Positions 9,750 through 62,478 of a stretch of DNA of 64,000 nt are shown here, piece after piece. A program made the translations under genes and the position numbers. Every line of letters begins with the position of its first letter. Positions within the stretch are counted from its first letter, which is position 1. The notes beneath the pieces are model-generated. The model did no database searches, was not told the DNA's origin, and saw only the letters and a program-made list of their open reading frames with translations. Source of the stretch: Shinella zoogloeoides (GTDB lineage Bacteria; Pseudomonadota; Alphaproteobacteria; Rhizobiales; Rhizobiaceae); the NCBI RefSeq assembly GCF_033705735.1, contig NZ_CP131130.1, positions 1,739,001 to 1,803,000 on the forward strand. The letters are read 5' to 3'.

Positions 9750-10784
<1,035 letters not shown>

Positions 10785-25065: not shown

Positions 25066-26844
25066 TCAAACGAGCTGGCGGCCCTTGGCGTCGATCGCGT
25101 TGGCGACCGCTTCGTCCGTGGCCTCGTCGGGCAGCAGCATTTCGTTATGCGCCTTGCCCGAGGGGATCATCGGGAAGCAGTTCGCGAGATTCGCCACGCG
25201 GCAGTCGAAGATGACCGGGCGCTTGACGTCGATCATCTCCTGGATGGCCGCATCGAGATCGGCCGGCTTGTCGCAGGCGATGCCGACGCCGCCATAGGCC
25301 TCCGCCAGCTTGACGAAGTCGGGCATGGCTTCCGTGTAGGAGTTCGACAGGCGGTTGCCGTGCAGCAGCTGCTGCCACTGGCGCACCATGCCCATATACT
25401 GGTTGTTCAGGATGAAGATCTTGACCGGCAGGTTATACTGCACGGCGCAGCTCATTTCCTGGATGCACATCTGGATCGAGGCGTCGCCGGCAATGTCGAT
25501 GACGAGGCTGTCGCGATGCGCGACCTGCACGCCGATGGCCGCCGGGAAGCCGTAGCCCATCGTGCCGAGGCCGCCCGAGGTCATCCAGCGGTTCGGCTGC
25601 TCGAAGCCGTAGAACTGCGCCGCCCACATCTGGTGCTGGCCGACTTCCGTCGTGATATAGGTATCGCGGTCCTTGGTCAGCTCGTAGAGCCGCTGGATCG
25701 CATATTGCGGCATGATGACGTCGGGGCTCGGCGTATAGGCGAAGGAATTGCGCGCCCGCCACTTGGCAATCGACGTCCACCAGTCGGCCTGGACTGCCTT
25801 GTCGTAGTCCTTCGCGCCGGCGCGCCACTGGCGGACCATGTCCTCGAGGACGTTGCCGACATCGCCCAGGATCGGAACGTCGACGCGGACGTTCTTGTTG
25901 AACGAGGACGGGTCGATGTCGATGTGGATCTTCTTCGAGTTCGGCGAGAAGGCATTCAGGCGGCCGGTGATGCGGTCGTCGAAGCGCGCGCCGATGCAGA
26001 CCATGACGTCGCAATCATGCATCGCCATGTTCGCCTCGTAGGAGCCGTGCATGCCCAGCATGCCCAGCCAGTTCTTGCCGGAGGCCGGATAGGCGCCGAG
26101 GCCCATCAGCGTGGAGGTGATCGGGAAGCCGGTGATCTCGACCAGCTCGCGCAAGAGGCGCGAGGCTTCCGGACCGGAATTCACGACGCCGCCGCCGGAA
26201 TAGATGATCGGCCGGCGGGCGGACTTCATCAGGCTGACGGCGGCCGCGATCTGGTTGGCGTCGCCCTGAACCTTCGGCTGGTAGCTCTTCTGGATGGGCG
26301 CGTCGGACGGCGGCGTATAGGTGCCGGTCGCGAACTGGACGTCCTTCGGGATATCGACGACGACGGGACCGGGACGGCCGGACTGCGCGACGCGGAACGC
26401 CTCGTGGATGATGCGGGCGAGATCGTTGACGTCCTTGACCAGCCAGTTGTGCTTGGTGCAGGGGCGCGTGATGCCGACCGTGTCGCATTCCTGGAAGGCG
26501 TCCGATCCGATGAGCGTGGTCGGAACCTGACCGGTGAGGCAGACGAGCGGGATGGAATCCATCAGGGCGTCCTGCAGCGGCGTGACGGCATTGGTCGCGC
26601 CGGGGCCGGAGGTGACGAGCATGACGCCGACCTTGCCGGTGGAGCGGGCATAGCCTTCGGCCATGTGGCCGGCGCCCTGCTCGTGGCGCACGAGGATGTG
26701 CTCGATGTCTTCCTGCTGGAAGATCTCGTCATAGATTGGCAGGACGGCGCCGCCCGGATAGCCGAAGATATGTTCAACGCCATTGTCTTTCAGGGCCTGC
26801 AAGACAATTTCGGCGCCCGTCATCTGGTTTTCTGTTCCGCTCAT
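25066..26844 (-). CDS. ilvI: Acetolactate synthase catalytic subunit
   Basis: Thiamine-diphosphate and FAD enzyme making acetolactate and acetohydroxybutyrate, the committed step to branched-chain amino acids. About 592 residues. GYPGGAVLPIYDE and VRHEQGAGHMAEGYAR (catalytic Glu), SGPGATNAVTPLQDALMDS, FAD-region GARFDDRITGRLNAF, and the ThDP motif IDIAGDASIQMCIQEMS...NNQYMGMVRQWQ. The ATG at 26844 (MSGTENQ) is my choice; an ATG nine codons earlier at 26871 is also open. Preceded by a leader peptide and attenuator. Could equally be called ilvB. Confidence 0.97.
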   Translation of the reverse strand: MSGTENQMTGAEIVLQALKDNGVEHIFGYPGGAVLPIYDEIFQQEDIEHILVRHEQGAGHMAEGYARSTGKVGVMLVTSGPGATNAVTPLQDALMDSIPLVCLTGQVPTTLIGSDAFQECDTVGITRPCTKHNWLVKDVNDLARIIHEAFRVAQSGRPGPVVVDIPKDVQFATGTYTPPSDAPIQKSYQPKVQGDANQIAAAVSLMKSARRPIIYSGGGVVNSGPEASRLLRELVEITGFPITSTLMGLGAYPASGKNWLGMLGMHGSYEANMAMHDCDVMVCIGARFDDRITGRLNAFSPNSKKIHIDIDPSSFNKNVRVDVPILGDVGNVLEDMVRQWRAGAKDYDKAVQADWWTSIAKWRARNSFAYTPSPDVIMPQYAIQRLYELTKDRDTYITTEVGQHQMWAAQFYGFEQPNRWMTSGGLGTMGYGFPAAIGVQVAHRDSLVIDIAGDASIQMCIQEMSCAVQYNLPVKIFILNNQYMGMVRQWQQLLHGNRLSNSYTEAMPDFVKLAEAYGGVGIACDKPADLDAAIQEMIDVKRPVIFDCRVANLANCFPMIPSGKAHNEMLLPDEATDEAVANAIDAKGRQLV

Positions 26845-26898
26845 CGGATTTCCGTCCGTCTCTTTTCGCATTTCGGGTGATTATCGAATTTCTGGGCA

Positions 26899-26923
26899 TA
26901 AAAAAAGGCCCCTGGAGGAGCCT
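26899..26923 (-). terminator. Attenuator terminator of ilvIH
   Basis: On the minus strand AGGCTCC-TCCA-GGGGCCT (one G-U pair) is followed by seven T's. It lies between the leader peptide and ilvI, where a transcription attenuator would act. Confidence 0.85.
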
Positions 26924-26930
26924 GCTTACC

Positions 26931-26977
26931 GCGCATGGGTGCTTTCGCCGGGTGGTTACACCACCTTGCCCATGCGC
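26931..26977 (-). promoter_or_regulatory. Upstream hairpin of the ilv attenuator
   Basis: GCGCATGGG inside the leader peptide gene pairs with CCCATGCGC just after it. Within that arm GGTGGT pairs with ACCACC across the leader stop codon. This is the usual position of a pause structure, which ribosome stalling on Val codons would disrupt. Confidence 0.65.
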
Positions 26978-27015
26978 CTTCCCACCACAAGAATGATAGC
27001 CGTCAGATTTTTCAT
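26956..27015 (-). CDS. ilv leader peptide, 19 residues
   Basis: Minus-strand frame ATG to TAA encoding MKNLTAIILVVGRRMGKVV. It contains Ile-Ile-Leu-Val-Val in one run and Val-Val just before the stop: the codons needed to sense all three branched-chain amino acids. It is followed by a pause-type hairpin and a T-tailed terminator, then ilvI-ilvH. There is no ribosome site, but the predicted transcript would start within about two bases of the ATG, so it is probably translated as a leaderless message. Call rests on composition, position and structure together. Confidence 0.85.
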   Translation of the reverse strand: MKNLTAIILVVGRRMGKVV

Positions 27016-27023
27016 GGGGCGAA

Positions 27024-27052
27024 TTGTTAGACACAAAGCAAAGGCGCGTCAA
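27024..27052 (-). promoter_or_regulatory. Promoter of the ilv leader-ilvIH operon
   Basis: TTGACG and TAACAA on the minus strand are separated by exactly 17 bases. Transcription would start near 27017, almost on the leader peptide ATG at 27015. Confidence 0.7.
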
Positions 27053-27185: not shown

Positions 27186-29237
27186 GTGCTGAACAATGAT
27201 TTCCAGACCTCTCTGACGGCAGGCGAGCAGGATCGCCGCGACGGGCTGGCGCCTGGAAACCGCCTGCTCGGCCGCGTCGTCGCCTGCAACGGCTCGCGCG
27301 CGACGATCAGCGCCGTGGCCGAGGGCGGCGAGACGGCGCTGACGGAATTGTGGTCCGTCGGACGCCTCATCTCCATCTCCGTCGGCCGCAACCGCGTCGT
27401 CGCCCTTGTCTATTCCATGGCCGCCGACCAGCAGAACTGGATCGACAACCGCGACACGGTCTTCCGCATCGAGGTCGAGCTTCTGGGCGAGGTGAATGTC
27501 AGCGCGGACGGCCGGGAGGAATTCTCCGCCGGCATCACCGACTACCCTTATCTCGGCGCCATCGCGCACCGCATCCGCGCCTCCGACCTTGCCAAGGTCT
27601 ACGACACCGGCAAGAACGACGTCTGCGTCATCGGCAAGCTGACGCAGGACGAGAGCCTCGATGCGACGATCCACGTGCCCTCCATGCTGGAGAAGCACTT
27701 CGCCATCGTCGGCACCACCGGCGTCGGCAAGTCCACCTCCGTGACGCTGCTCTTGCACAAGGCGATCCAGGCCGACCCGAGCCTGCGCGTGCTGATCCTC
27801 GATCCGCATAACGAATTCGCCTCCGCCTTCGGCGACCTTGCCGTCGTCATCGATACCGATACGCTGGACCTGCCCTTCTGGCTGTTCCGGCTGGAGGAAC
27901 TGGCCGAGGTGATCTTCCGCGGCCGCCCGCCGGTGCCGGAGGAGATGGACATCCTGCGCGACCTCATTCCCGAGGCCAAGCGCGCCTTCCGCGGCTCCAA
28001 CGAAAGCGGCGTGATGCGCCGCGCAAGCGAGAAGAGCTCGATCACCGCCGATACGCCGGTGCCCTTCCGCATCGCGGATCTGCTGGCGCTCGTCGACGAG
28101 CGCATCGGCCGCCTCGAAGGCCGGGCGGAGAAGCCGCACCTGCGCTCGCTCAAGGTCAAGATCATGTCGGCGATCAACGACCCGCGCTACCATTTCATGT
28201 TCTCCTCGAACACGATCACCGACACGATCCTCGACACCATCGCCCGCATCTTCCGCATTCCCGGCGAAGGCAAGCCGGTGACGACCTTCCAGCTCGCCGG
28301 CATCCCGTCGGAAGTGGTCAATTCCGTCGCCTCGGTGCTCTGCCGCATGGCCTTCGAGATCGGCCTGTGGAGCAATGGCGGCGTGCACATGCTGGTCGTC
28401 TGCGAGGAGGCGCACCGCTACGTGCCGGCCGACCCGAGGCTCGGCTTCGCCCCGACCCGCCAGGCCATCGCCCGCATCGCCAAGGAAGGCCGCAAATACG
28501 GCGTGTCGCTCGGCATCATCACCCAGCGCCCCGGCGAACTCGACCCGACCATCCTTTCCCAGTGCTCGACGATCTTCGCCATGCGCCTTGCCAACGAGCA
28601 CGACCAGGAGATCATCCGCTCGGCGATCCCCAATTCGTCGTCCTCGACGACGAGCTTCATTTCCTCCATCGGCAACGGCGAGGCCATCGCCTTCGGCGAG
28701 GCCGTGGCGGTGCCGATGCGCATGCGCTTTTCCCGCGTGGAATCGAACCGCCTGCCGAAGGCCGGCAGCTCCGGCGTGAAGACCAGCGAGGACACCCCGC
28801 AAAGCGTCGACCTCCGATCGATCGTCGCCCGCATGCGCGCGGTCTCCGGCCCGGACATCTCCAACTTCCAGAATGCCTATCTCGCCTCGCAGGGCCAGGG
28901 CACCACGCTGCCGACGGGCTACGAAGATACGCCCTACGAGGACGAGGAAGACTATATCGAGACGCTCCAGGCCGCGGCGCCCGCCCGCCCGGCCGCGCCG
29001 CCGCCCGAGCCCTACCGGCCCGACATGCTCCCTGGCGCGGGTAGCGTCTACGAGCCCTCGCCGCAGGAGCGGTTCGACGCCATCCGCCGGGAACTGGCCG
29101 AGCCGCAACGCCCCGCCGCCGATCCCTATCGCCAGCCGCAGCGCCCCGCCTTCGGCGAGCAGCAGGAGCCGCGCCGCGAGGGCTCCATCCGCGAACAGCT
29201 CCTCAAGAAGCCGCTCAGCAGCCTGATCAGGCGCTAG
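27186..29237 (+). CDS. HerA-like ATP-binding protein (DUF87/FtsK-type ATPase)
   Basis: 683-residue hexameric-type ATPase of the HerA/VirB4 superfamily. An N-terminal beta-barrel HAS-like domain (about 20-130) precedes Walker A GTTGVGKST (about 176-184), LILDPHNEF, a central insertion, Walker B VHMLVVCEEAHRYVP, and ITQRPGELDPTILSQCSTIFAMRL with the arginine-finger region. The C-terminal 130 residues are Pro/Glu/Arg-rich and low complexity. In archaea HerA pairs with NurA in DNA end processing; no nuclease partner is visible here, so the role is open. GTG start with AAGGAG nine bases before. The 3' end overlaps miaA by 11 bases, convergently. Confidence 0.82.
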   Translation: MLNNDFQTSLTAGEQDRRDGLAPGNRLLGRVVACNGSRATISAVAEGGETALTELWSVGRLISISVGRNRVVALVYSMAADQQNWIDNRDTVFRIEVELLGEVNVSADGREEFSAGITDYPYLGAIAHRIRASDLAKVYDTGKNDVCVIGKLTQDESLDATIHVPSMLEKHFAIVGTTGVGKSTSVTLLLHKAIQADPSLRVLILDPHNEFASAFGDLAVVIDTDTLDLPFWLFRLEELAEVIFRGRPPVPEEMDILRDLIPEAKRAFRGSNESGVMRRASEKSSITADTPVPFRIADLLALVDERIGRLEGRAEKPHLRSLKVKIMSAINDPRYHFMFSSNTITDTILDTIARIFRIPGEGKPVTTFQLAGIPSEVVNSVASVLCRMAFEIGLWSNGGVHMLVVCEEAHRYVPADPRLGFAPTRQAIARIAKEGRKYGVSLGIITQRPGELDPTILSQCSTIFAMRLANEHDQEIIRSAIPNSSSSTTSFISSIGNGEAIAFGEAVAVPMRMRFSRVESNRLPKAGSSGVKTSEDTPQSVDLRSIVARMRAVSGPDISNFQNAYLASQGQGTTLPTGYEDTPYEDEEDYIETLQAAAPARPAAPPPEPYRPDMLPGAGSVYEPSPQERFDAIRRELAEPQRPAADPYRQPQRPAFGEQQEPRREGSIREQLLKKPLSSLIRR

Positions 29238-30138: not shown

Positions 30139-31027
30139 GGCTTTCGTTGCCACGCTTGTCGCCAATCCGTCAAATCCTGTTCTGACGCCCGCCATCGCCG
30201 AAAAGGCCGCGGATGCGGTCAAGGCATCCGGCCTCTACTGGCTCGCCGACGGCATCGCCTGCGATATCGCGCTGCGCGACGACAGCGACATCCACGCCAC
30301 CCGCGACGCGATCCTCGCGGTCATCGCCGGCGCGCCAATCGACCTTGCCGTGCAGGAAGCCGAGACGCGGCGCAAGAAGCTGCTGATCGCCGACATGGAT
30401 TCGACCATGATCGGCCAGGAATGCATCGACGAACTGGCGGCGGAAGTCGGCCTGAAGGACAAGGTCGCCGCCATCACCGCCCGGGCTATGAACGGCGAAA
30501 TCGCCTTCGAGCCCGCCCTTCGCGAGCGCGTCGCGCTGCTGAAGGGCCTGCCGGTCTCCGTCATCGGCGAGGTGATCGAAAAGCGCATCACGCTGACGCC
30601 CGGCGGGCGCGAACTCATCTCGACCATGAAGGCGAAGGGCTATTACACCGCCCTCGTCTCCGGCGGCTTCACCGTCTTCACCAGCCGCATCGCCGAAACG
30701 CTCGGCTTCGACGAGAACCGCGCCAATATCCTGCTCGACGCCGACGGCAGGCTCACCGGCGAGGTCGCCGAGCCGATCCTCGGCAAGCAGGCCAAGGTCG
30801 ATGCGCTGGTCGAGATTTCCGCGCGCCTCGGCATTTCGCCGGAGGAGGCCATGGCCGTCGGCGACGGGGCCAACGACCTCGGCATGCTGCACCTTTCCGG
30901 CGCCGGCGTCGCCCTGCACGCCAAGCCCGCCGTCGCGGCCGAAGCGAAGATCCGCATCGACCACGGCGACCTCACCGCCCTTCTTTATCTGCAGGGCTAC
31001 CGCAAATCGGACTTCATGACAGGTTGA
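30137..31027 (+). CDS. serB: Phosphoserine phosphatase
   Basis: Last step of serine synthesis, a HAD-superfamily phosphatase. 296 residues. An N-terminal ACT-like region of about 75 residues precedes the catalytic motif IADMDSTM (nucleophile Asp86, acid Asp88), then ALVSGGFTVFTSRIAE, and AMAVGDGANDLGMLHLSGAGVALHAKP for metal binding. The ATG has AAGG ten bases upstream and is nearly back-to-back with miaA. It overlaps the acetyltransferase gene downstream, so the two are coupled. Confidence 0.97.
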   Translation: MAFVATLVANPSNPVLTPAIAEKAADAVKASGLYWLADGIACDIALRDDSDIHATRDAILAVIAGAPIDLAVQEAETRRKKLLIADMDSTMIGQECIDELAAEVGLKDKVAAITARAMNGEIAFEPALRERVALLKGLPVSVIGEVIEKRITLTPGGRELISTMKAKGYYTALVSGGFTVFTSRIAETLGFDENRANILLDADGRLTGEVAEPILGKQAKVDALVEISARLGISPEEAMAVGDGANDLGMLHLSGAGVALHAKPAVAAEAKIRIDHGDLTALLYLQGYRKSDFMTG

Positions 31028-44559: not shown

Positions 44560-47500
44560 TCACTCGGCCGCCAGCGGCAGGACCTCGGCCTCATCGCCCT
44601 TTGCGAGCATGCGCGCATGCTCCAGCTCGGCGGCAAGACGCTTTTCCTCGTCGGCATGGGGGCTGGTGAAGCGGGCGATCACCAGATAGGCGACCGGCGT
44701 CAGGTACAGCGTCACCACCGTCGCAAGGCCGAGGCCGCCGACGAGCACCCAGCCGAGCGAGATGCGCGCTTCTGCGCCCGCCCCGCTTGCCAGCACCAGC
44801 GGCACCGCGCCGACGACGGTGGCGATCATCGTCATCAGCACGGGACGCAGGCGGATGTTCGAGGCGTTCTCGATGGCGCTGCGGATATCCTGCCCGCGGT
44901 CGCGGAGCTGGTTGGCGAATTCCACGATAAGGATACCGTTCTTCGCCATGATGCCGACGAGCAGCACGAGGCCGATCTGGCTGTAGATGTTGAGCGTCGT
45001 CCCCGTCAGGATCATCGCGAAGACGGCGCAGGCAAGCCCGAGCGGCACCGTCACCATGATGATGATGGAGCTGACGAAACTTTCGAACTGCGCCGACAGC
45101 ACGAGGAAGATGATGGCGATGGCGAAGCCGAAGGTGATGACGAGGCCACTCGAATTCTCCTGCAGCGTCGCGGCTTCCGCCATCGGCATCAGGCGCGAGC
45201 CCTCCGGCAGCAGCGGTTCGGCCATGTCCTGCACCATCTTCAGCGCATCGCCGAGCGCCAGCCCGTCCTTAAGGCCGGCGGAAAGCGAGACGGCGCGAAG
45301 CTGCTGCTCGCGCGAGAGCTGCGGCGCGACGGCCTTTTCCTCCAGCGAGGCGATGGAGGACATCGGCACGATCTTGCCGTCGCCGGTCTTGAGGAAGATG
45401 TTCTCCAGGTCCATCGGGTCGTTGATCGGCGTCGTGGTGGAGGAGAGCTTGACCGGATAGGCCTGCCCCTCGACATAGACGTCGACGACGCTGGTGCCCT
45501 CCAGCATCGCCTGCAGCGCGGCGGCAAGGCCGGTGATGTCGATGCCGAGATCGGCGGCGCGCTCGCGGTCGATCGTCACCGAAAGCTGCGCCTGGTTGGC
45601 CTCGTAGTTGAGACGCACGTTCTGGAAGCGGCCACTATCCTCGATCTTGCGCACGAGTTCGGCCGCCGCACTGCCGAGCTTGGTATAGTCGTTGCCGACG
45701 AGGGCCACCTGCAGGCCGTTGCCGGCGCCGCGGATGCCGAGGCTGTTCGGCTGCATGGTGAAGGCGCGCACGGACGGCACCGTCGCCACGGCGGCGTTGA
45801 TGTCCTGCACGATCTGCTGCTGCGTGCGGTCGCGCTCGCTCCACGGCGCCAGCGTCAGCACCATGAAGCCGCTGTTCGTCGAGCCGCCCTGCCCCGAAAT
45901 GGAGAAGATGTTGACGATCTCGCCGTCGTCGTAGAGCGGACGCAGCTTGTTCTCGACCACCTTCATCTGGTCCTGCGCATAATCGAGCGACACGCCCTGC
46001 GGCGCGTTCACGCGCAGCATGACCATCGACCGGTCCTCGCTCGGCGTCAGTTCCGACTTGATCGTGAAGAACGAGGTTGCCCCCGCCGCCGTGAAGAGTA
46101 GCGCCACGAGGAAGACGACGAAGGGCGCGCCGAGGCAGGCACTCAGCGTCGAGCGATAGAAGCGCGAGGCCGCCCCGCCGATGCGGGCGAGAATGCCGGT
46201 ATGCTCGTGCTTGACCTCCCTGGTCAGCATGCGCGAGGCGAGCATCGGGCAGAGCGTCAGCGCCACGAAGGAGGAGAGCAGCACGGCGAAGGCCAGCACG
46301 AAGCCGAATTCGCGGAAGAGACGCCCCGCTTGCCCCGGCAGGAACGAGAGCGGCACGAAGACGGCGGCGAGCGTCGCGGTCGTCGCGATGACGGCGAAGA
46401 ACACTTCGAGCGTGCCGTGGATCGCCGCCGCGCGCGGCTTCAGCCCCTCGGCGCGCCGGCGCACGATGTTTTCCAGCACCACGATGGCGTCGTCCACCAC
46501 GAGGCCCGTCGCCAGCACGATGGCCAGCAGCGTCAGGATGTTGACGGAGAAGCCGGCCATGTAGATGGCCGCGATTGTGCCGATCAGCGCGATGGGCATG
46601 CTGATCGTCGGAATGAGCGTCGCGCGCCAGTCGAGCAGGAAGAGATAGATGACGAGCGTCACGATCAGCACGGCGACGACGAGTGCGATCTCCACTTCGT
46701 GGATGGCGCCGTCGATGAAGACGGCATCGTCGCTGGTGATCTTGAGTTGGGTGCCCTCGGGCAGGATGGTACCGAGGCGCGAGACCATCTGCTTCACGCC
46801 CTCGGAAATGTCGAGGGTGTTGGACTGCGCCTGGCGGATGATGCCGAGGCCGATGCCCTGGCGGCCGTTGGAACGCAGCGCCGTCGAGCCCTCGTCCGGC
46901 CCCAGCGTCACCATGGCGATGTCGCCGAGGCGCACGCGGTTCTTGAGGATCAGGTTCTCGAAGTCGGAGGGCTTGGCAAGGTCGGCCGTCGCGCGCACCG
47001 TAATGTCCTGGCTGCGGCTCTTCAGCGAGCCGGCCGGCACGTCGAAGGCGGCGGTCGCCAGCGCGTTGCGCAGGTCCGCCACCGTCAGGCCGCGTGCCGC
47101 GAGCTTCGACTGGTCGACGTCGACGCGGAAGATCTTCTCCTGGTCGCCATAGACGGCGACGTCCGCGACCCCCTCGACCGAGGCGAGACGGTCGGTGATC
47201 TCGTTCTCGGCGAGCAGCGTCAGGTCTTCGAGCGACTGCGTGTCGGAGGTCAGCGCAAGCCGCATGATCGGCTGGCTGTCCGCATCGGCCTTCACGACGC
47301 GGGGCTCCTCGGCGCCGTCCGGAATCTTGTTGGCCACCCGGCCGAGCGCATCGCGCACGTCGTTGGCGGCCTGGTTGACGTCCGTCGTATCCGAGAACTG
47401 CAGCGTCACGCGGCTGCGCGCGAAGGACGAGACCGAGGAGATATCCTTGATGCCCTGCACGCGGGAGACCGCGCCTTCGATGACGTCGGTCAGCTCGCGG

Positions 47501-47718
47501 TCCACCGTCTCGGGCGAAGCGCCGTCGAAAGTGGTCGTCACGCTGATGACCGGCTGGTCGACGGAAGGAAGCTCGCGAATCTCCACGCCGTTGAACGCGG
47601 CAAGGCCGGCGACGACGATCAGCGTATTGAGGACGAGGGCGAAGATCGGCCGCCGAATGAAGAGCGCGGTAAAGCCCGCCGTGCCGGTATCGTTGAGCCC
47701 GCCTGCCTCACCCGACAT
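44560..47718 (-). CDS. RND efflux pump, inner-membrane permease (HAE-1)
   Basis: 1052 residues, 12 membrane helices with two large periplasmic loops. The N-terminus has LFIRRPIFALVLNTLIVVAGLAAF; the TM4 proton-relay Asp pair is present in LVVDDAIVVLENI; the TM10 lysine is in VGIMAKNGILIVEF. All essential relay residues are intact. Its start shares a base with the adaptor stop (TGATG). Overall form resembles Brucella BepG/MexF-like permeases. No outer-membrane channel and no regulator are adjacent. Substrates unknown. Longer open sequence at the 5' side belongs to the adaptor gene. Confidence 0.92.
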   Translation of the reverse strand: MSGEAGGLNDTGTAGFTALFIRRPIFALVLNTLIVVAGLAAFNGVEIRELPSVDQPVISVTTTFDGASPETVDRELTDVIEGAVSRVQGIKDISSVSSFARSRVTLQFSDTTDVNQAANDVRDALGRVANKIPDGAEEPRVVKADADSQPIMRLALTSDTQSLEDLTLLAENEITDRLASVEGVADVAVYGDQEKIFRVDVDQSKLAARGLTVADLRNALATAAFDVPAGSLKSRSQDITVRATADLAKPSDFENLILKNRVRLGDIAMVTLGPDEGSTALRSNGRQGIGLGIIRQAQSNTLDISEGVKQMVSRLGTILPEGTQLKITSDDAVFIDGAIHEVEIALVVAVLIVTLVIYLFLLDWRATLIPTISMPIALIGTIAAIYMAGFSVNILTLLAIVLATGLVVDDAIVVLENIVRRRAEGLKPRAAAIHGTLEVFFAVIATTATLAAVFVPLSFLPGQAGRLFREFGFVLAFAVLLSSFVALTLCPMLASRMLTREVKHEHTGILARIGGAASRFYRSTLSACLGAPFVVFLVALLFTAAGATSFFTIKSELTPSEDRSMVMLRVNAPQGVSLDYAQDQMKVVENKLRPLYDDGEIVNIFSISGQGGSTNSGFMVLTLAPWSERDRTQQQIVQDINAAVATVPSVRAFTMQPNSLGIRGAGNGLQVALVGNDYTKLGSAAAELVRKIEDSGRFQNVRLNYEANQAQLSVTIDRERAADLGIDITGLAAALQAMLEGTSVVDVYVEGQAYPVKLSSTTTPINDPMDLENIFLKTGDGKIVPMSSIASLEEKAVAPQLSREQQLRAVSLSAGLKDGLALGDALKMVQDMAEPLLPEGSRLMPMAEAATLQENSSGLVITFGFAIAIIFLVLSAQFESFVSSIIIMVTVPLGLACAVFAMILTGTTLNIYSQIGLVLLVGIMAKNGILIVEFANQLRDRGQDIRSAIENASNIRLRPVLMTMIATVVGAVPLVLASGAGAEARISLGWVLVGGLGLATVVTLYLTPVAYLVIARFTSPHADEEKRLAAELEHARMLAKGDEAEVLPLAAE

Positions 47719-48878
47719 CACGAGCCCTCCGTCACGGCGGGGGTCTTCTCCTCGGCCGTGCGCACCGCGCCGCCCGGGCGCAGCGTCTGCACGCCTTCCG
47801 TGACGACGGCGTCGCCCTCGGCAAGCGCGGCCTTCACCAGCACCTTGTCGGGATTGCGCTGGACGATATGCACCGGAACCCGCTCGACCGTGTCGCCCTT
47901 GAGCTTCCAGATATAGGAGCCGTCGGCGCTCCACTGGATCGCCAGCGGATCGACGCTCGGATAGAAGTCGCCTTCGAAGCGCATGTTCACCTGGAAGGAC
48001 ATGCCGGCGCGCAGCACGTCTTCGGGATTGCTGATGCGTGCCCGCACCCGCAACGTCCGGCTTTCCTGCTCGATGCGGTTGTCGACGGCCTGGATCTTGC
48101 CGGTGAAGGTCTCCCCCGGCCGCGCGACGGCCGTCGCCGTCAGGTCGCTGCCGACGCGCACGCTGGTGGCGAAGCGCTCCGGCACCCAGTAGTCGACGAG
48201 GATTTCCGAGCGGTCGTCGATGCGGGCGATCGCCGAGGCGGTGGTGACGTAATCGCCGGGATTGACCGAAATGATGCCGACCACGCCGCTATAGGGCGCG
48301 GTGATGTCGCGGCGGCGGAGCGTCAGTTCCGCATTCCTGAGGGCAAGTTCCGCCGCCTTCAGCACGGTCTCGGCATCCTGCAGGTCGGCAAGGCTGGTGG
48401 AGGAGCGCAGGTTCTGGATGCGCTTGAGCTTCTGCTCCGCGCTGTCGCGGGCGACGCGCGCCTGGTCGGCGGCGATCTTCTGCTCGTCGCTGTCGAGCCG
48501 GGCGATCACCTGCCCCTGTTCCACGCGCTCGCCGGATTCGACGAGGACTTCCGTGAGGTTGCCGGTCGAATAGGGCGTGACCGTCACGGTGCGGATCGCC
48601 TCACCGTCACCGATGGCGTTCAGCCGGTCGTTGACGACGGCCATGGCGACGGGCCTTGTGGCGACGAGCGTCGGCCCGCCGCCGAAACCGCGGCGTCCAC
48701 CACCCTCTTTCCCGCCTTCGGCCTTGCCGTCACCGGCCGGCGCAATGGCCGCGACGAGCCCTTCGGGCAGACCCGCGGCCTCCAGCATGCCGTTCGCTCC
48801 CGGAACGAAGCGGCCCCAAAGCAACACCCCCGCCGCGATCACGCCAAGGCCGATGAGGAGCTGTTTCCAAACCCGCAT
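47718..48878 (-). CDS. RND periplasmic adaptor (membrane fusion protein)
   Basis: 386 residues. An N-terminal membrane anchor (RVWKQLLIGLGVIAAGVLLWGRF) is followed by a Gly-rich linker (GGGRRGFGGG) and the lipoyl half (TGNLTEVLVESGERVEQGQVIARLD). A coiled coil runs about 140-200, then the second lipoyl half APYSGVVGIISVNPGDYVTTAS, and beta-barrel and membrane-proximal domains. Links the permease to a TolC-type channel encoded elsewhere. ATG chosen where GGAGAG precedes by eight bases. The region upstream carries a phased TTAC-N6-GTAA pair. Confidence 0.92.
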   Translation of the reverse strand: MRVWKQLLIGLGVIAAGVLLWGRFVPGANGMLEAAGLPEGLVAAIAPAGDGKAEGGKEGGGRRGFGGGPTLVATRPVAMAVVNDRLNAIGDGEAIRTVTVTPYSTGNLTEVLVESGERVEQGQVIARLDSDEQKIAADQARVARDSAEQKLKRIQNLRSSTSLADLQDAETVLKAAELALRNAELTLRRRDITAPYSGVVGIISVNPGDYVTTASAIARIDDRSEILVDYWVPERFATSVRVGSDLTATAVARPGETFTGKIQAVDNRIEQESRTLRVRARISNPEDVLRAGMSFQVNMRFEGDFYPSVDPLAIQWSADGSYIWKLKGDTVERVPVHIVQRNPDKVLVKAALAEGDAVVTEGVQTLRPGGAVRTAEEKTPAVTEGS

Positions 48879-49210
48879 GCACACACTCTCCGATGGAAGC
48901 GAAACATCGCCTGTTGCGACGCGACATAGAGCAAGTATCCCGCTTTGGAAATGAACCGGCAATGAAAGAGTACGATCATTACGAAATTGTAAGATAGCCG
49001 GGCCGGTCTGTTACCGAAATGTAAGAAAAAGTGGAGAATTCCGCCGAGCCGGACCTCCTCTCCCTCGACGGGGACGCCGTCTCCGCCGGCGGCCTCGCAA
49101 GGGCCCGGACGGCGGCGGTTTCCACAATCTTTCGGCCCTCGTCCTTCCCCGCGGAATAAAAGCAGAACGGAAAACTGGCCTTTCGGGACCGAATCACTAC
49201 ATTGAGCCGC
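48879..49210. other. Divergent intergenic region, efflux adaptor and uvrD
   Basis: 332 bases with no gene seen. The left part carries a possible regulator site (see 48979-49024). The right part is GC-rich without clear promoter boxes; uvrD must start from here. Confidence 0.5.
48979..49024. promoter_or_regulatory. Two phased TTAC-N6-GTAA palindromes upstream of the RND operon
   Basis: TTAC-gaaatt-GTAA at 48979-48992 and TTAC-cgaaat-GTAA at 49011-49024. Their centres are 32 bases apart, close to three helix turns. They lie about 100-145 bases before the adaptor start. Such a pair suggests a dimer bound side by side, for example a two-component response regulator. Confidence 0.5.
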
Positions 49211-57225: not shown

Positions 57226-57849
57226 TCAGCCGGAGGGCGCGTGCGAGCCATAGGTGCGGAAAAGGCGGCGCAGGGCCTCCGTCCCCTCGCCTGCGATATC
57301 GAACCTGCGACCGAACAGCAGCCATTCCGAACAGAGCCCCTTGAGGACCCAGCGCAGCATGGATGCGGCGGAGCGGGGCGTCCAGCAGGCGCAGAGCTGG
57401 CCCTGCCGCTCAGCCTTGGCGAAGGCCGTTTCCAGCGTCTGCATGTGCTCGTCGTCGATGTCGTTCTGGCGCTCGGAGATACGGGCGAATTCGCCGGTGG
57501 CGTCGCAACGCAGGAGGATCGACAGGATGCGCTGGCGATGCTCGTCGGCGGCCAAGAGTTCCAGCCATTCCTTGCCGACCCGCTCCAGAACGGCGAGCAC
57601 GTCGACATTCTCCGCCTCCAGCTCGCGGGCGATCAGGTCTTCCTGCGGCAGGGGAAGCGAATCGTAGAGTTCCAGCACGAGGTCCGCCCGGTTGGCGAAG
57701 TGCCAGTAGATGGCGCCGCGGGTGACCCCCGCGGCGCGCGCCACATCCTCCATGGAGGCATGGGCGACACCTTTTTCGTAGAAGACCTTCTCGGCCGCCA
57801 GCAGGATCTGCTGGCGGGTTTCCTTGGCCTCCGCCTTGGTCCGGCGCAT
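57226..57849 (-). CDS. TetR family repressor of the efflux operon (SmeR/AcrR-like)
   Basis: 207 residues. Helix-turn-helix TRQQILLAAEKVFYEKGVAHASMEDVARAAGVTRGAIYWHFANRADL is almost an AcrR/TtgR consensus; the C-terminal drug-binding region is typical. It is the third gene of adaptor-pump-regulator, six bases after the pump stop, as in the Sinorhizobium smeA-smeB-smeR operon. The AcrR-like operator at 62404-62427 is its obvious site. ATG start. Identity with SmeR itself is inferred from order and family. Confidence 0.88.
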   Translation of the reverse strand: MRRTKAEAKETRQQILLAAEKVFYEKGVAHASMEDVARAAGVTRGAIYWHFANRADLVLELYDSLPLPQEDLIARELEAENVDVLAVLERVGKEWLELLAADEHRQRILSILLRCDATGEFARISERQNDIDDEHMQTLETAFAKAERQGQLCACWTPRSAASMLRWVLKGLCSEWLLFGRRFDIAGEGTEALRRLFRTYGSHAPSG

Positions 57850-57855
57850 GGCGGC

Positions 57856-60800
57856 CTACTCCGCCGGGCTTGCGGCCGGAGCCGGCTCCTCTTTCTTCTT
57901 CCCGTAGCCGAACAGCTTCATCACGAAGACGAAGAAGACCGGCACGAAGAAGATGGCGAGCACCGTGGCGGTGATCATGCCGCCCATGACGCCGGTGCCG
58001 ATGGCCCGCTGGCTGCCCGCGCTGGCGCCCGTCGCGATGGCGAGCGGCAGAACGCCGAGCGTGAAGGCGAGCGAGGTCATCAGGATCGGGCGGAAGCGCA
58101 GGTGGCAGGCCTCGATGGTCGCCTCGATCAGCGACCGGCCGTCCGCCATCAGTTCCTTGGCGAACTCGATGATCAGGATCGCGTTCTTCGCCGAAAGGCC
58201 GATGATCGCGATGAGGCCCACCTTGAAGTACACGTCGTTCGACATGTCGCGGAGCGTCACTGCGATGACCGCGCCGATGACGCCGAGCGGCACGACGAGG
58301 ATGACCGCGAACGGGATCGACCAGCTCTCATAGAGCGCCGCAAGGCACAGGAACACCAGGAGGATCGAGAGACCGACGAGGATCGGCGCCTGCGAACCCG
58401 ACTGGATTTCCTGCAGCGACTGCCCCGTCCACTCGTAGCCGAAGCCCGGCGGCAGCTGAGCGGCAAGCCGCTCCATCTCGGTGATGGCATCGCCCGAGGA
58501 GAAGCCCGGCTTGGTGTCGCCGCTGATGCGGATCGACGGATAGCCGTTATAGCCCACGGTCTGCGTCGGCGCCTTCACCCATTCGGCGGTCGCGAATGCC
58601 GAGATCGGAACCATCCCGCCCTTGGAATTGCGGACGTTGAGGTTGAGGAGGTCGGCGATCTGCATGCGTTCGTTCTGGTCCGCCTGGACCGTCACGCGCT
58701 GCATGCGTCCCGCATTCGGGAAGTCGTTGACGTAGGTCGAGCCCAGATTGGTCGAGATCGTCGTGTTGATGTCCGCGAAGGTCACGCCGAAGGTGTTGGC
58801 CTTCTCGCGGTCGATCACGATGTTGACCTGCGCGGCGTCCGGCATCCCGTCGACGCGCACGCCCGTGATGACGTTGCTCTTGCCGGCAAGATCGAGGAGC
58901 TGAGCCGTCGCGGCCGAAAGGGCCTGCTGGCCGAGGCCGCCGCGGTCCTGGAGACGGAAGGAGAAGCCGCCCGTCGTGCCGAGGCCCTGGATCGGCGGCG
59001 GCGACAGCGCGAAGCTGATCGCATCCTTGATCTGGCTCATCGCCATGCTGGCGCGCCCTGCGATCGACTGGGCCGAATCGTCCGGTCCGCGCACGCTCCA
59101 GTCCTTCAGCGTCACGAAGGCAAGACCTGCATTCTGGCCCGCGCCGAAGAACGAGAAGCCATTGATGCCGACGATGGTGTCGACCGCCGGCTCCTTGCCG
59201 AAGATCTTCTCGGTCTGCGAAAGCACTTCGTCCGTACGGTGGCCGGTCGCCTCCGAGGGAAGCTGCATCATGACGATCACGAAGCCCTGGTCTTCGTCCG
59301 GCAGGAACGAGGACGGCAGCTTCATGAACATGTAGCCGAGGCCGGCGAGGATCGCGAGATAGATCACCATCACGCGGCCTGCCTTGCGGACCAGCCAGCC
59401 GACCGTGCCGCTATAGCCTCTCGAGCTGCGGTCGAAGCTGCGGTTGAACCAGCCGAAGAAGCCACGCTTCTCGTGATGGTGTCCCTTCGGAACCTGCTTG
59501 AGGAAGCTGCCGGCGAGCGCCGGGGTCAGCGACAAGGCGAGGAAGGCCGAGAAGAGGATCGAGACGACCATCGTCAGCGAGAACTGCTGGTAGATGACGC
59601 CGACCGCACCGGGGAAGAAGCCCATCGGAATGAACACCGAGGCGAGCACCAGCGTGATGCCGATGACGGCGCCGGTGATCTGCTTCATCGCCTTGCGGGT
59701 CGCCTCCTTGGGAGGCAGCCCCTCTTCCGACATGATGCGCTCGACGTTCTCCACGACGATGATCGCATCGTCCACGAGAATGCCGATGGCGAGCACCATG
59801 GCGAACATGGTCAGGACGTTGATCGAGAATCCCATAGCGAGCATGACGGCACAGGTACCGAGCAGCGCGACCGGAACGACGAGCGTCGGGATGATCGTGT
59901 AGCGGATGTTCTGCAGGAACAGGAACATCACGAGGAACACGAGGCCGACGGCTTCGAGCAGCGTATGCAGAACCTTCTCGATCGACACCTTCACGAAGGG
60001 CGACGTGTCGTAGGGGATCGAATATTCTATGCCCGGCGGGAAGAACTTCGCCAGTTCATCCATGCGCGCCTTGATCGCTTCGGACGTCGCCATGGCGTTG
60101 CCGCTCGGCGAAAGCTGAACGCCGATGGCGGCGGAAGGCTGGCCGTTGAGGCGCGTCGAGAACGAATAGGTCTCGCCGCCCACTTCGACACGCGCCACGT
60201 CGCGCAGGCGCACGGCCGAACCGTCCGCATTGGCGCGCAGCACGATGGCGCCGAACTCCTCCGGCGTCGTGAGCTGGCCCTTGATGTTGACGGGAGCTGC
60301 GATCTGCTGGGTGATCGGGTTCGGCTGGGCACCGATGCTGCCGGCCGCGATCTGCGCGTTCTGCGCCTGCACGGCGGCGGTGACGTCCGCGGCCGTCAGG
60401 TTGAGGCCGAGCATCTTGGCCGGATCGAGCCAGACGCGCATGGAGCGCTGGGTCGCGAAGAGCTGCGCACGACCGACGCCGGGCACGCGCTGGATTTCCG
60501 ACAGGATGTTGCGGTTCAGGTAGTCGCCGAGGCTGATGGCGTCCATCGAGCCGTCGGTGGAGGTAAGCGAGACAATCAGCAGGAAGCCGGAGCCGGCTTC
60601 TTCGACCTGCACGCCCTGGCGGCGGACCGAATCGGGAAGACGCGGCTCGACGCGGCTGACGCGGTTCTGCACGTCGACCGAGGCCTGGCTCGGATCGGTG
60701 CCCGGCGCGAAGGTGATGTTGATTTCGGCCGAACCGGCGGCACTGGAGGTCGATTCGAAGTAGAGCAGGCCGTCGACGCCGTTCAGCTCATCCTCGATGA

Positions 60801-60990
60801 GCTTGGTGACGCTCTGGTAGGTGTCCTGCGAGGACGCGCCGGAATAGGTCGTCGAGACCGAGATCTGCGGCGGGGCGACGTTCGGATATTGCGCGATCGG
60901 CAGGAGCGGGATGGAGATGGCGCCGGCGATCATGATGAAGATCGCGACGACCCAGGCGAAAATCGGCCTGTCGATAAAGAAACTGGGCAT
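57856..60990 (-). CDS. RND multidrug efflux permease, AcrB/SmeB-like
   Basis: 1044 residues. Starts MPSFFIDRPIFAWVVAIFIMIAGAISIPLLPIAQYP, the AcrB signature. Proton-relay Asp pair in GILVDDAIIVVENVERI (TM4) and Lys in IGLSAKNAILIIEFAKEL (TM10) intact; porter-domain segments LGLNLTAADVTAAVQAQNAQIAAGSIG and TFGVTFADINTTISTNLGSTYVNDF present. C-terminal tail short. Middle gene of the efflux operon, 11 bases after the adaptor. Likely exports lipophilic drugs and plant compounds, by analogy. Confidence 0.95.
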   Translation of the reverse strand: MPSFFIDRPIFAWVVAIFIMIAGAISIPLLPIAQYPNVAPPQISVSTTYSGASSQDTYQSVTKLIEDELNGVDGLLYFESTSSAAGSAEINITFAPGTDPSQASVDVQNRVSRVEPRLPDSVRRQGVQVEEAGSGFLLIVSLTSTDGSMDAISLGDYLNRNILSEIQRVPGVGRAQLFATQRSMRVWLDPAKMLGLNLTAADVTAAVQAQNAQIAAGSIGAQPNPITQQIAAPVNIKGQLTTPEEFGAIVLRANADGSAVRLRDVARVEVGGETYSFSTRLNGQPSAAIGVQLSPSGNAMATSEAIKARMDELAKFFPPGIEYSIPYDTSPFVKVSIEKVLHTLLEAVGLVFLVMFLFLQNIRYTIIPTLVVPVALLGTCAVMLAMGFSINVLTMFAMVLAIGILVDDAIIVVENVERIMSEEGLPPKEATRKAMKQITGAVIGITLVLASVFIPMGFFPGAVGVIYQQFSLTMVVSILFSAFLALSLTPALAGSFLKQVPKGHHHEKRGFFGWFNRSFDRSSRGYSGTVGWLVRKAGRVMVIYLAILAGLGYMFMKLPSSFLPDEDQGFVIVMMQLPSEATGHRTDEVLSQTEKIFGKEPAVDTIVGINGFSFFGAGQNAGLAFVTLKDWSVRGPDDSAQSIAGRASMAMSQIKDAISFALSPPPIQGLGTTGGFSFRLQDRGGLGQQALSAATAQLLDLAGKSNVITGVRVDGMPDAAQVNIVIDREKANTFGVTFADINTTISTNLGSTYVNDFPNAGRMQRVTVQADQNERMQIADLLNLNVRNSKGGMVPISAFATAEWVKAPTQTVGYNGYPSIRISGDTKPGFSSGDAITEMERLAAQLPPGFGYEWTGQSLQEIQSGSQAPILVGLSILLVFLCLAALYESWSIPFAVILVVPLGVIGAVIAVTLRDMSNDVYFKVGLIAIIGLSAKNAILIIEFAKELMADGRSLIEATIEACHLRFRPILMTSLAFTLGVLPLAIATGASAGSQRAIGTGVMGGMITATVLAIFFVPVFFVFVMKLFGYGKKKEEPAPAASPAE

Positions 60991-61001
60991 AGTCCGGATC
61001 C

Positions 61002-62318
61002 TTACTTTGCCTGCTCGGTCTTGGCGGCATCGCCGCCTTCGGCCTTGCCGGCATCGCCGGTCTTGGCGGCACCTTCGCCGCCCTCAGCCTTGCCAGCCGG
61101 GGCAGCGCCCTCGGTCTTGGCATCCTTGCCGGCTTCCGCAGCGCCGCCTTCGGCGGGCGTCTTGGCAGCGTTGGCGACAGCATTCGGGTCCCATTCGGAC
61201 GGCACGACTTCAGCGCCCGGCTGGACCTTCTGGAAGCCCTCGACGATGATCTTCTCGCCGTCCTTCAGGCCTTCGGTGATGACCCAGCGCGTGCCGGCGG
61301 CACGGCCGACGTGAACCGGACGCGGACCGGCCTTGTTGTCGGCGGAAACGACATAGACGAGCGCACTGCCCGAGGCGTCGCGCTGCACGGCCTGCTGCGG
61401 CACGAGAACGGCGCCCCTCTCGATGCCCTGTTCGATCTGCACGCGCACATACATGCCCGGCAGGAGGTCGCCATCGGGATTCGGGAATTCGCCGCGCAGC
61501 GTCACCTGGCCGGTCGATTCGTCGACGGCCGCTTCGGAGAACAGCAGCTTGCCCGGCTGCGCATAGGTCGAACCGTCGTCGAGCATCAGCGTGACGTCGG
61601 CCGAATTGTTGTCGGCCATCAGGTCGCCGTCCTGCAGCGCCTTGCGCAGGCGGATGAGGTCGGTCGCCGACTGGGTGAAGTCGGCATAGACCGGATCGAG
61701 CTGCTGGATGGTCGCCAGGTTCTCCGTGCCGTTGGCCGAGACCAGCGCGCCTTCGGTGATGAGCGCGCGGCCGATTCGGCCGCTGATCGGCGCCTTCACC
61801 TCGGTATATTCGAGATTGAGCTTGGCCGTCGCGAGACCGGCTTCCGCGATCGCGACATCGGCATCGGCCTGCGCCAGCTTGGCGACGGCGTCGTCATAAG
61901 CCTGTGCGGAAGCGACGTTGGACTTCCGGAGCTGCTCCTGGCGAACGGTGTCGTTCTTCGCCTGGGCCTGTACGGCCTTGGCGCGGCGCAACGTCGCCTC
62001 GGCGCTTTCGACCTGCACCTGGAACGGCGCCGGATCGATGCGGTAGAGCACGTCGCCTTCCTTGACCAGCGAGCCCTGCTCGAAGACGCGTTCGATGACG
62101 ATGCCCGTCGCGCGCGGACGAACTTCGGCCGTGCGCGTCGCCGCGATGCGGCCCGGCAGGTCGTTGGTGATCGGCACGTCTTCCGCCTTGACGGTGATGG
62201 TGGCCACCTGCGGCGGCGGGAAGCCCCCCGCTCCCTGCGGCGCCTGTTCGTCCTTACAGCCGGCGAGAATCATGAGGGCGCCAAAGGTCGCAATCGAAAT
62301 CGGTCTCGTAAAACGCAT
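61002..62318 (-). CDS. RND periplasmic adaptor lipoprotein, AcrA/SmeA-like
   Basis: 438 residues. Lipoprotein signal with lipobox LAGC, Cys21. Lipoyl halves (DLPGRIAATRTAEVRPRATGIVIERVFEQGSLVKEGDVLYRIDP and YTEVKAPISGRIGRALITEGALV) flank a coiled coil, followed by beta-barrel and membrane-proximal domains. The last 60 or so residues are an unusual Ala/Gly/Glu/Lys tail (repeats of AEGG and AKT) not needed for the fold. ATG used because GGAAGAA precedes it. First gene of the operon, below an AcrR-type operator. Confidence 0.93.
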   Translation of the reverse strand: MRFTRPISIATFGALMILAGCKDEQAPQGAGGFPPPQVATITVKAEDVPITNDLPGRIAATRTAEVRPRATGIVIERVFEQGSLVKEGDVLYRIDPAPFQVQVESAEATLRRAKAVQAQAKNDTVRQEQLRKSNVASAQAYDDAVAKLAQADADVAIAEAGLATAKLNLEYTEVKAPISGRIGRALITEGALVSANGTENLATIQQLDPVYADFTQSATDLIRLRKALQDGDLMADNNSADVTLMLDDGSTYAQPGKLLFSEAAVDESTGQVTLRGEFPNPDGDLLPGMYVRVQIEQGIERGAVLVPQQAVQRDASGSALVYVVSADNKAGPRPVHVGRAAGTRWVITEGLKDGEKIIVEGFQKVQPGAEVVPSEWDPNAVANAAKTPAEGGAAEAGKDAKTEGAAPAGKAEGGEGAAKTGDAGKAEGGDAAKTEQAK

Positions 62319-62373
62319 GGGTTCTTCCATAGGCGATGTCGGCAAAAGGCCGGCAAGGAGCTGAAAACGTGAA

Positions 62374-62401
62374 GATGCGGTGACCGCAGGATCACCGCAT
62401 C
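62374..62401. promoter_or_regulatory. Leader hairpin of the second efflux operon
   Basis: Perfect 10-bp inverted repeat GATGCGGTGA/TCACCGCATC with an eight-base loop, in the untranslated leader between the operator and the adaptor start. No T-run, so not a simple terminator; may affect mRNA stability or be a second protein site. Confidence 0.5.
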
Positions 62402-62403
62402 GC

Positions 62404-62427
62404 AACATACAAACAAGGCTGTATGTT
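62404..62427. promoter_or_regulatory. AcrR-type operator of the efflux operon
   Basis: AACATACA and TGTATGTT are perfect inverted 8-mers around an eight-base spacer, close to the known E. coli AcrR site. A candidate promoter on the minus strand (TTGTCA, 17 bases, TACAGC) overlaps it, as expected for a repressor. The operon's own TetR protein is the likely ligand-responsive binder. Confidence 0.75.
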
Positions 62428-62478
62428 AGTTTCTGTCTTTTGACAACTGAGGATAGCCGCGAGAAAGGCAGCAATCCA

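What the first reader, a model, noticed from the sequence alone, without database searches (positions are those of the whole stretch)
26899..27052. Leaderless branched-chain leader peptide and attenuator in front of ilvIH
Seen: a 19-codon frame rich in Ile, Leu and Val, followed by a pause-type hairpin overlapping its stop and a T7-tailed terminator, then ilvI-ilvH. A TTGACG-N17-TAACAA promoter places the transcript start within about two bases of the ATG, and there is no ribosome site, so the peptide is probably translated leaderless. Known: leader-peptide attenuation of ilv operons in enterobacteria, and a leaderless trpL in Sinorhizobium meliloti whose sRNA and peptide act in trans, reportedly on the smeABR mRNA. 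Inference: this may be an ilv counterpart, and terminated transcripts could be a trans-acting small RNA plus peptide. A smeABR-like operon lies in this same window.
Basis: partly seen in the sequence, partly recalled or inferred. Interest (0 to 1): 0.75.

Follow-up and report, generated by a model that had tools for sequence, protein, structure and literature searches.

The report
Leaderless branched-chain attenuator before ilvIH
A tiny, probably leaderless reading frame and a terminator in front of the branched-chain amino acid genes look like a starvation switch that is conserved across the rhizobia family, and copies of the same switch also sit in front of a membrane transporter gene.

Summary
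The leader (ATG 27015, MKNLTAIILVVGRRMGKVV, stop 26958-26956), hairpin and U7 terminator match Rfam RF02502 "Atu_C8", 112.8 bits: a family listed as an sRNA. Attenuation of ilvIH in S. meliloti was already predicted (cited in PMC2573895). In a family-wide draw 116 of 121 genomes have it, and all 118 copies precede ilvI. TTGAC lies 35-38 nt before an in-frame leader ATG in 107 of 118, so leaderlessness looks conserved; ten others have no such promoter there and one has no leader ATG. The stop-codon hairpin co-varies strongly.

Best explanation (0.85): ribosome-mediated transcription attenuation by Ile/Leu/Val codons. Weak point: no conserved antiterminator was found.

The trans-acting sRNA/peptide idea has no support here: the smeABR-like operon is 30 kb away, smeR relatives occur in 13 of 30 tested leader-bearing genomes, and an ilvC pairing lead failed a synonymous-codon null.

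Unexpected: the same leaderless leader, richer in valine, sits before a Bcr/CflA-type MFS gene: in 10 of the 30 best family loci examined and on 12 Rhizobium or Phyllobacterium plasmids. Two members of that transporter clade carry TPP riboswitches instead; TPP is the cofactor of IlvI.

The parts
27047..27052 (-). -35 hexamer TTGACG
   Evidence: TTGAC at 35-38 nt before an in-frame leader ATG in 107 of 118 family copies
27024..27029 (-). -10 hexamer TAACAA, 17-nt spacer; expected start at or within about 2 nt of the ATG
   Evidence: 17- or 18-nt spacer and 6-8 nt from -10 to ATG in 103 of 107
26956..27015 (-). leaderless leader ORF MKNLTAIILVVGRRMGKVV plus stop TAA; regulatory run Ile-Ile-Leu-Val-Val
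   Evidence: run of 3 or more I/L/V in 117 of 118 family copies (frame chosen as the most I/L/V-rich ATG frame)
26931..26977 (-). hairpin P1 (arms 26977-26969 and 26939-26931) enclosing the stop codon and two small inner hairpins
   Evidence: 1036 of 1042 cells paired, 68 both-side changes, shuffles at most 19
26900..26923 (-). intrinsic terminator AGGCUCC-UCCA-GGGGCCU with U7
   Evidence: a terminator in 117 of 117 family copies with a leader ATG
26890..27010 (-). match to Rfam RF02502 Atu_C8, the presumed terminated leader RNA
25066..26871 (-). ilvI, acetolactate synthase 3 large subunit (start may be 26844)
   Evidence: NCBIfam NF006581 1227.5 bits
24476..25048 (-). ilvH, acetolactate synthase small subunit
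   Evidence: NCBIfam NF008864 224.1 bits

Best explanation
It is a leaderless, ribosome-mediated transcription attenuator of ilvIH. RNA polymerase starts at or within two bases of the AUG (inferred from promoter geometry), so ribosomes load on the 5'-terminal AUG without a ribosome site (inferred; reported for S. meliloti trpL). With Ile, Leu and Val in supply the ribosome runs to the UAA inside hairpin P1, P1 cannot form, and the U7 terminator ends transcription, leaving a short RNA of about 115 nt, the Atu_C8 sRNA (the Rfam match is shown; the terminated length is inferred). When charged tRNA-Ile/Leu/Val is short the ribosome stalls in IILVV, P1 forms, and termination is reduced so that ilvIH is read (inferred; how P1 or another structure blocks the terminator is not identified). 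Cis control of acetolactate synthase is its main job; no trans function is shown.
For: Rfam match. 116 of 121 family genomes match, 112 over the cut-off, and all 118 copies lie before ilvI in the same sense (tblastn). An I/L/V run of 3 or more in 117 of 118. Leader codons are atypical: Val GTA 30% against 4% in ilvI, Ile ATT 66% against 27%, Leu CTG 6% against 57%. TTGAC sits 35-38 nt from an in-frame ATG in 107 of 118, against 36 TTGAC at 30,798 positions 40-300 nt upstream. P1 has 68 both-side changes, shuffles at most 19. A terminator in 117 of 117. The 80 best named IlvI relatives (of 593 confirmed, capped) all have it, among them Shinella, Ensifer, Agrobacterium, Rhizobium and Mesorhizobium. 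An S. meliloti copy is MKNFAVILVVGRRMGRMV behind TTGACG. PMC2573895 (passages) lists an ilvIH cis-regulatory element in S. meliloti citing Vitreschak 2004.
Against: No conserved antiterminator. The best 4-bp helix to the terminator 5' arm is complete in 75% but lies in P1's own 5' arm; no 5-bp helix exceeds 6% (gappy columns were left out). The GGA:UCC register (36 of 116) beats per-row shuffles (at most 10) but not column permutations (163 of 300 reach it). The terminator folds at 0.88-0.89 wherever the ribosome is put. This test is weak: five E. coli attenuators reach 0.55-0.79 arm pairing, 117 rhizobial leaders a median of 0.55, this leader 0.45, and E. coli terminators also stay at 0.53 or more. 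The family copies were found with a model that includes hairpin and terminator, which favours their presence. No transcript or ribosome data were available for this genome. Outside the family only 1 of 60 ilvI upstream regions passes the strict leader test.
Confidence: 0.85

Rival explanations
1. Dual-function RNA: besides attenuation, the terminated RNA and/or the peptide act in trans, as rnTrpL and peTrpL do in S. meliloti, on smeABR, ilvC or other genes.
For: Leaderless design and terminated RNA resemble rnTrpL (PMC7298713, PMC10117765, passages). In this genome the smeR start region ranks 2 of 41 and ilvC 4 of 41 for duplex z with the leader; ilvC mean z -1.29 over 30 genomes against -0.39 for a control.
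Against: ilvC pairing is no better than synonymous recodings: mean z -0.10, median p 0.48 over 30 genomes. smeR relatives in 13 of 30, mean z -0.33. The conserved peptide end (RMG) is explained by hairpin P1.
Confidence: 0.2
2. Standalone sRNA gene, as Rfam files it, that merely lies before ilvI.
For: Rfam type is Gene; sRNA.
Against: All 118 family copies lie before ilvI, and the other over-cut-off copies found lie before MFS genes of one clade; an I/L/V run is kept in 117 of 118 copies.
Confidence: 0.05
3. The leader works by polymerase-ribosome coupling and not by an antiterminator helix: stalling near the 5' end changes coupling so that the terminator fails.
For: No conserved antiterminator; stop-to-terminator distance mostly 33-39 nt, extremes 28 and 43.
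Against: The same kind of test hardly resolves known E. coli antiterminators.
Confidence: 0.2

Closest known systems
Rfam RF02502 Atu_C8 (Rhizobiales sRNA)
   Same: same sequence, structure and strand, 112.8 bits against a cut-off of 50
   Different: filed as an sRNA gene; the model begins inside leader codon 2, and leader frame, promoter and ilvI link are not in the family name
S. meliloti trpL / rnTrpL / peTrpL
   Same: leaderless short ORF starting the transcript, attenuator, terminated small RNA (passages)
   Different: Ile/Leu/Val instead of Trp; no trans action shown
ilvIH attenuator predicted in alphaproteobacteria (Vitreschak 2004, seen only as a citation) and Caulobacter ilvL (passages)
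   Same: leader peptide and terminator before the acetolactate synthase operon
   Different: leaderless start conserved here; G142, outside the family, has an AGGA before its leader ATG
E. coli ilvL, ivbL, leuL, thrL, trpL attenuators
   Same: regulatory codons, hairpin, U-tract terminator
   Different: those are leadered and have known antiterminators (recalled); none was identified here

Membership tests
Rfam RF02502 Atu_C8 | covariance-model score at or above the curated cut-off | tested here: met
   112.8 bits against 50
leader-peptide transcription attenuator | short ORF rich in codons for the operon's product | tested here: met
   IILVV in this leader; I/L/V run of 3 or more in 117 of 118
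leader-peptide transcription attenuator | intrinsic terminator between ORF and first gene | tested here: met
   117 of 117 copies with a leader ATG
leader-peptide transcription attenuator | mutually exclusive antiterminator helix | tested here: inconclusive
   none conserved; the method barely resolves E. coli controls
leader-peptide transcription attenuator | read-through responds to charged tRNA | not testable with these tools
   needs expression data
leaderless mRNA | transcript starts at the AUG | tested here: inconclusive
   promoter geometry fits in 107 of 118; no 5'-end data
rnTrpL/peTrpL-like dual-function RNA | RNA or peptide acts on other mRNAs | tested here: inconclusive
   base-pairing tests for smeR and ilvC give no support; peptide action not testable

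The most novel reading that the evidence does not exclude
One leaderless BCAA attenuator cassette serves a two-part, mobile regulon: acetolactate synthase (ilvIH) and a Bcr/CflA-type MFS transporter found on Rhizobium and Phyllobacterium megaplasmids and in several other genera. In two members of that transporter clade the cassette is replaced by a TPP riboswitch. Since IlvI needs TPP, both sensors would report failure of the same enzyme step, by product shortage or by cofactor shortage. The transporter would then supply or remove a compound when that step fails, or expel an inhibitor of the step or of Ile/Leu/Val-tRNA charging, which the stalled ribosome would detect directly.
Probability: 0.3. 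Interest if true: 0.7.

Novelty: new variant of a known kind. Interest (0 to 1): 0.5.

Why it matters
It suggests a function for an Rfam family listed only as an sRNA, points to a leaderless attenuator kept over most of a large bacterial family with about ten leadered-looking exceptions for comparison, and leaves a sharp question: what stops the terminator if no antiterminator is conserved. The transporter-linked copies would tie amino acid starvation, or thiamine cofactor shortage, to a Bcr/CflA-type pump and give a direct way to look for its substrate.

Tried and rejected
Rejected or dropped: (1) smeABR link: distance, patchy presence, no conserved pairing. (2) ilvC as trans target: a near-continuous complementarity of leader codons ILVVGxRM to ilvC codons 1-6 looked striking, but synonymous recoding matches it. 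I fetched ilvC of 30 class genomes for a codon comparison and did not run that comparison. (3) GGA:UCC antiterminator, suggested by truncated folds (output partly cut): not better than column-permuted controls. (4) Leader peptides before ilvI outside the family: 1 of 60 strict; a loose test gave 27 of 60 against 18 of 60 on the reverse strand. (5) My first reading of the loci left the minus-strand ones unturned; corrected. (6) A first IlvI tree used a wrong-frame outgroup; redone.

Literature: searches (10 of 10). In their listings and in the passages I opened no paper was seen that joins Atu_C8 to ilvI or a C8-type leader to an MFS gene. One search listed 12 of 41 papers; its one RF02502 string is part of a gene number in an unrelated paper. 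PMC12218461 (terms searched, none found) and PMC10469942 (passages) gave nothing. Wilms 2012 (not held; recalled) and Vitreschak 2004 (seen only as a reference; content recalled) are outside this library.

Full report
WHAT IS THERE. On the minus strand before ilvI: TTGACG (27052-27047), 17 nt, TAACAA (27029-27024), 8 nt, ATG (27015), 19 codons MKNLTAIILVVGRRMGKVV, TAA (26958-26956), a hairpin P1 whose arms GCGCAUGGG and CCCAUGCGC enclose the stop codon and two small hairpins, and a terminator AGGCUCC-UCCA-GGGGCCU with U7. IlvI and IlvH follow. Rfam RF02502 Atu_C8 "Rhizobiales sRNA" matches 27010-26890 with 112.8 bits, once in the genome at E<=0.001. The nearest named IlvI is from Shinella sp. 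CPCC 101442, 96%, and a Shinella sp. PSBB067 record matches the leader DNA at 94.5%, so the window is probably Shinella (inference).

CONSERVATION. RF02502 occurs in 116 of 121 genomes drawn from the family at E<=0.001, 112 of 121 over the cut-off; the five without it have genomes of 1.2-2.0 Mb. They gave 118 copies. All 118 have ilvI downstream in the same sense by tblastn at E<=1e-3, including both copies in G029 (86 and 79% to this IlvI) and both in G063 (77 and 79%). 117 of 118 have an ATG leader (L123 does not); the frame was chosen as the most I/L/V-rich ATG frame. All 117 have a terminator; note that the model used to find the copies includes it. In a class-wide draw 6 of 289 match and 2 of 289 are over the cut-off, this genome and G227, under stricter filters. 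Of 90 class genomes with an IlvI match I took the upstream regions of 60, best matches first; 1 of 60 has a strict leader (G142, MHRLVVIVGKWRMGR, with an AGGA before it), 0 of 60 on the reverse strand. The 80 best named relatives all have the leaderless form (80 of 80; 593 relatives were confirmed and 80 kept).

LEADERLESSNESS. TTGAC begins 35 (12), 36 (22), 37 (54) or 38 (19) nt before an in-frame leader ATG: 107 of 118. The same word occurs 36 times at 30,798 positions 40-300 nt upstream. Five of the 107 have an SD-like 4-mer between 18 and 4 nt before the ATG. The ATG was chosen among in-frame candidates, which favours the fit slightly. The 11 others are L112-L121 and L123; several of them show a TTGAC-like word further upstream and 4 of 10 an SD-like 4-mer, so they look leadered. 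On a quick, poorly resolved IlvI-fragment tree (117 of 118 copies; L013 fell out) they are clustered: 3 changes against 10.7 for shuffled labels; one clade is not rejected (p 0.946). This is promoter geometry, not a mapped start. S. meliloti has 171 mapped leaderless mRNAs (PMC3616915, passages); its ilvI leader is not named in the passages I saw.

HAIRPIN AND CODONS. On 116 distinct leaders P1's nine pairs are standard in 1036 of 1042 cells, with 68 cells changed on both sides; slid versions give at most 22 such cells and 300 shuffles at most 19 (related rows are not independent). So the conserved peptide end RMG is largely dictated by the RNA. Codons in the leaders differ from ilvI: Val GTA 0.30 against 0.04, Ile ATT 0.66 against 0.27, Leu CTG 0.06 against 0.57; the Gly after the run is GGA in 73 of 84, against 0.085 of Gly codons in ilvI.

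THE WEAK POINT. P1 ends seven nt before the terminator here and shares no base with it. I found no conserved alternative helix to the terminator 5' arm: best 4-bp register 75% and inside P1's own 5' arm, no 5-bp register above 6% (gappy columns left out). A GGA:UCC register present in 36 of 116 beats per-row shuffles (at most 10) but is reached by 163 of 300 column permutations. Consensus pairing of the arm never exceeds 0.32 at six ribosome positions, while the terminator stays at 0.88-0.89. As a control, E. coli thr, leu, ilvGMEDA, trp and ilvBN leaders gave maximal arm pairing 0.69, 0.55, 0.79, 0.71 and 0.74; 117 rhizobial leaders a median of 0.55 (42 at 0.6 or more, 11 at 0.8 or more; terminator below 0.5 in 3) and this leader 0.45. 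The method is weak, and the antiterminator step is unidentified rather than excluded.

TRANS ACTION. The smeABR-like genes are 57226-57849 (TetR-type by eye), 57856-60990 (RND) and 61002-62474 (adaptor), 30 kb away. A smeR relative at E<=1e-25 is in 13 of 30 leader-bearing genomes, 30 being a chosen part of the 116; its start region has mean z -0.33 against the leader (13 genomes), although in this genome it ranks 2 of 41. ilvC has mean z -1.29 over 30 genomes against -0.39 for a control and rank 4 of 41, and leader codons ILVVGxRM pair almost continuously with ilvC codons 1-6 (16 bp in G105); but recoding ilvC synonymously gives the same energies (mean z -0.10, median p 0.48). Nothing supports a trans role; a peptide role was not testable.

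PRIOR WORK. PMC2573895 (passages) lists an "ilvIH cis regulatory" element in S. meliloti citing Vitreschak 2004; PMC1273637 (passages) mentions an alphaproteobacterial ilvB leader peptide from the same source; PMC4117421 (passages) shows a Caulobacter leader before its ilv operon and 375 leaderless mRNAs; PMC7298713 and PMC10117765 (passages) describe leaderless trpL, rnTrpL and peTrpL. So the attenuator itself is expected; the conserved leaderless start and the identity with Atu_C8 were not seen in my ten searches (named in Tried and rejected), which cover only part of the literature.

AN UNEXPECTED SECOND USE. The one over-cut-off match outside the family (L031, 98.8 bits) precedes a Bcr/CflA-family MFS gene, not ilvI. 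On plasmids leader copies also precede such a gene: of the 17 records, five are chromosome-like (four Sinorhizobium, one Shinella) and the other 12 all have the MFS just downstream (positions). The L345 and L031 proteins are 49% identical; L345's matches TIGR00710 Bcr/CflA below its cut-off (178.6 against 200.9), L031's above it (212.8). In 394 family genomes 64 have a relative at E<=1e-80; I examined the 30 best loci only, and 10 of these 30, in five genera, carry the leader over the Rfam cut-off. On a quick, midpoint-rooted tree of 41 proteins (28 of those loci, L345, L031 and 11 plasmid loci) one clade of 26 (support 91) holds all 21 leader-bearing genes, and a starred subclade 18 of 19; L031 and L345 were found by the leader and the plasmid loci are partly near-copies, so these fractions are not a census. 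17 of the 21 are over the Rfam cut-off and 4 (L381, L385-L387) rest on blastn and pattern. 19 of 21 keep TTGAC at 36-38 nt. Their peptides are Val-richer: 2.94 Val per segment (18 of 21 peptides) against 2.05 (107 of 117 ilvI leaders, those with the RM/RV motif). Of the five clade members without a listed leader, L353 (30.5 bits) and L356 show diverged BCAA leaders with P1-like arms and a terminator by eye, L358 and L382 have TPP riboswitches (74.4 and 74.6 bits), and in L384 (a Pseudomonas plasmid) none was found. G000 has no such MFS at that threshold. What the transporter moves is unknown; the TPP/BCAA coincidence points to the acetolactate synthase step (that IlvI uses TPP is recalled) and is the boldest reading I keep.

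VERDICT. Observation confirmed; interpretation partly supported; leaderless BCAA attenuator of ilvIH at 0.85; antitermination step open; trans role unsupported; the transporter-linked copies are the part most worth following.

Noticed in passing
L345:2976-4412, L031:1499-2869, L347-L352, L354, L355, L357, L360, L377-L381, L383, L385-L387: The same leaderless, Val-rich C8 leader stands before a Bcr/CflA-type MFS gene in one transporter clade, on rhizobial plasmids and in five genera of the family.
   Followed up: partly
L358:1244-1359 and L382:1279-1395: Two members of that MFS clade have TPP riboswitches in place of the amino acid leader.
   Followed up: partly
window 26899-26894: After the U-tract many copies keep A-U(1-3)-GCC (GCC in 61 of 117), also where a possible partner GGGC in P1 is lost; no role known.
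   Followed up: partly
window 9750-10769: ilvC lies about 14 kb from ilvH here. In 26 of 30 leader-bearing genomes ilvC is on the leader's contig but about 10 kb or more away, in 4 on another contig, whereas in G162, outside the family, it is next to ilvI.
   Followed up: no
window 44560-48962: A second RND-type permease (44560-47934) with an adaptor-like gene (47718-48962), by eye from the ORF list, not scanned against families.
   Followed up: no
window 27186-29237: A divergent HerA/DUF87-type ATPase gene starts 171 bases behind the leader ATG; related sequence was found in 58 of 124 loci.
   Followed up: no
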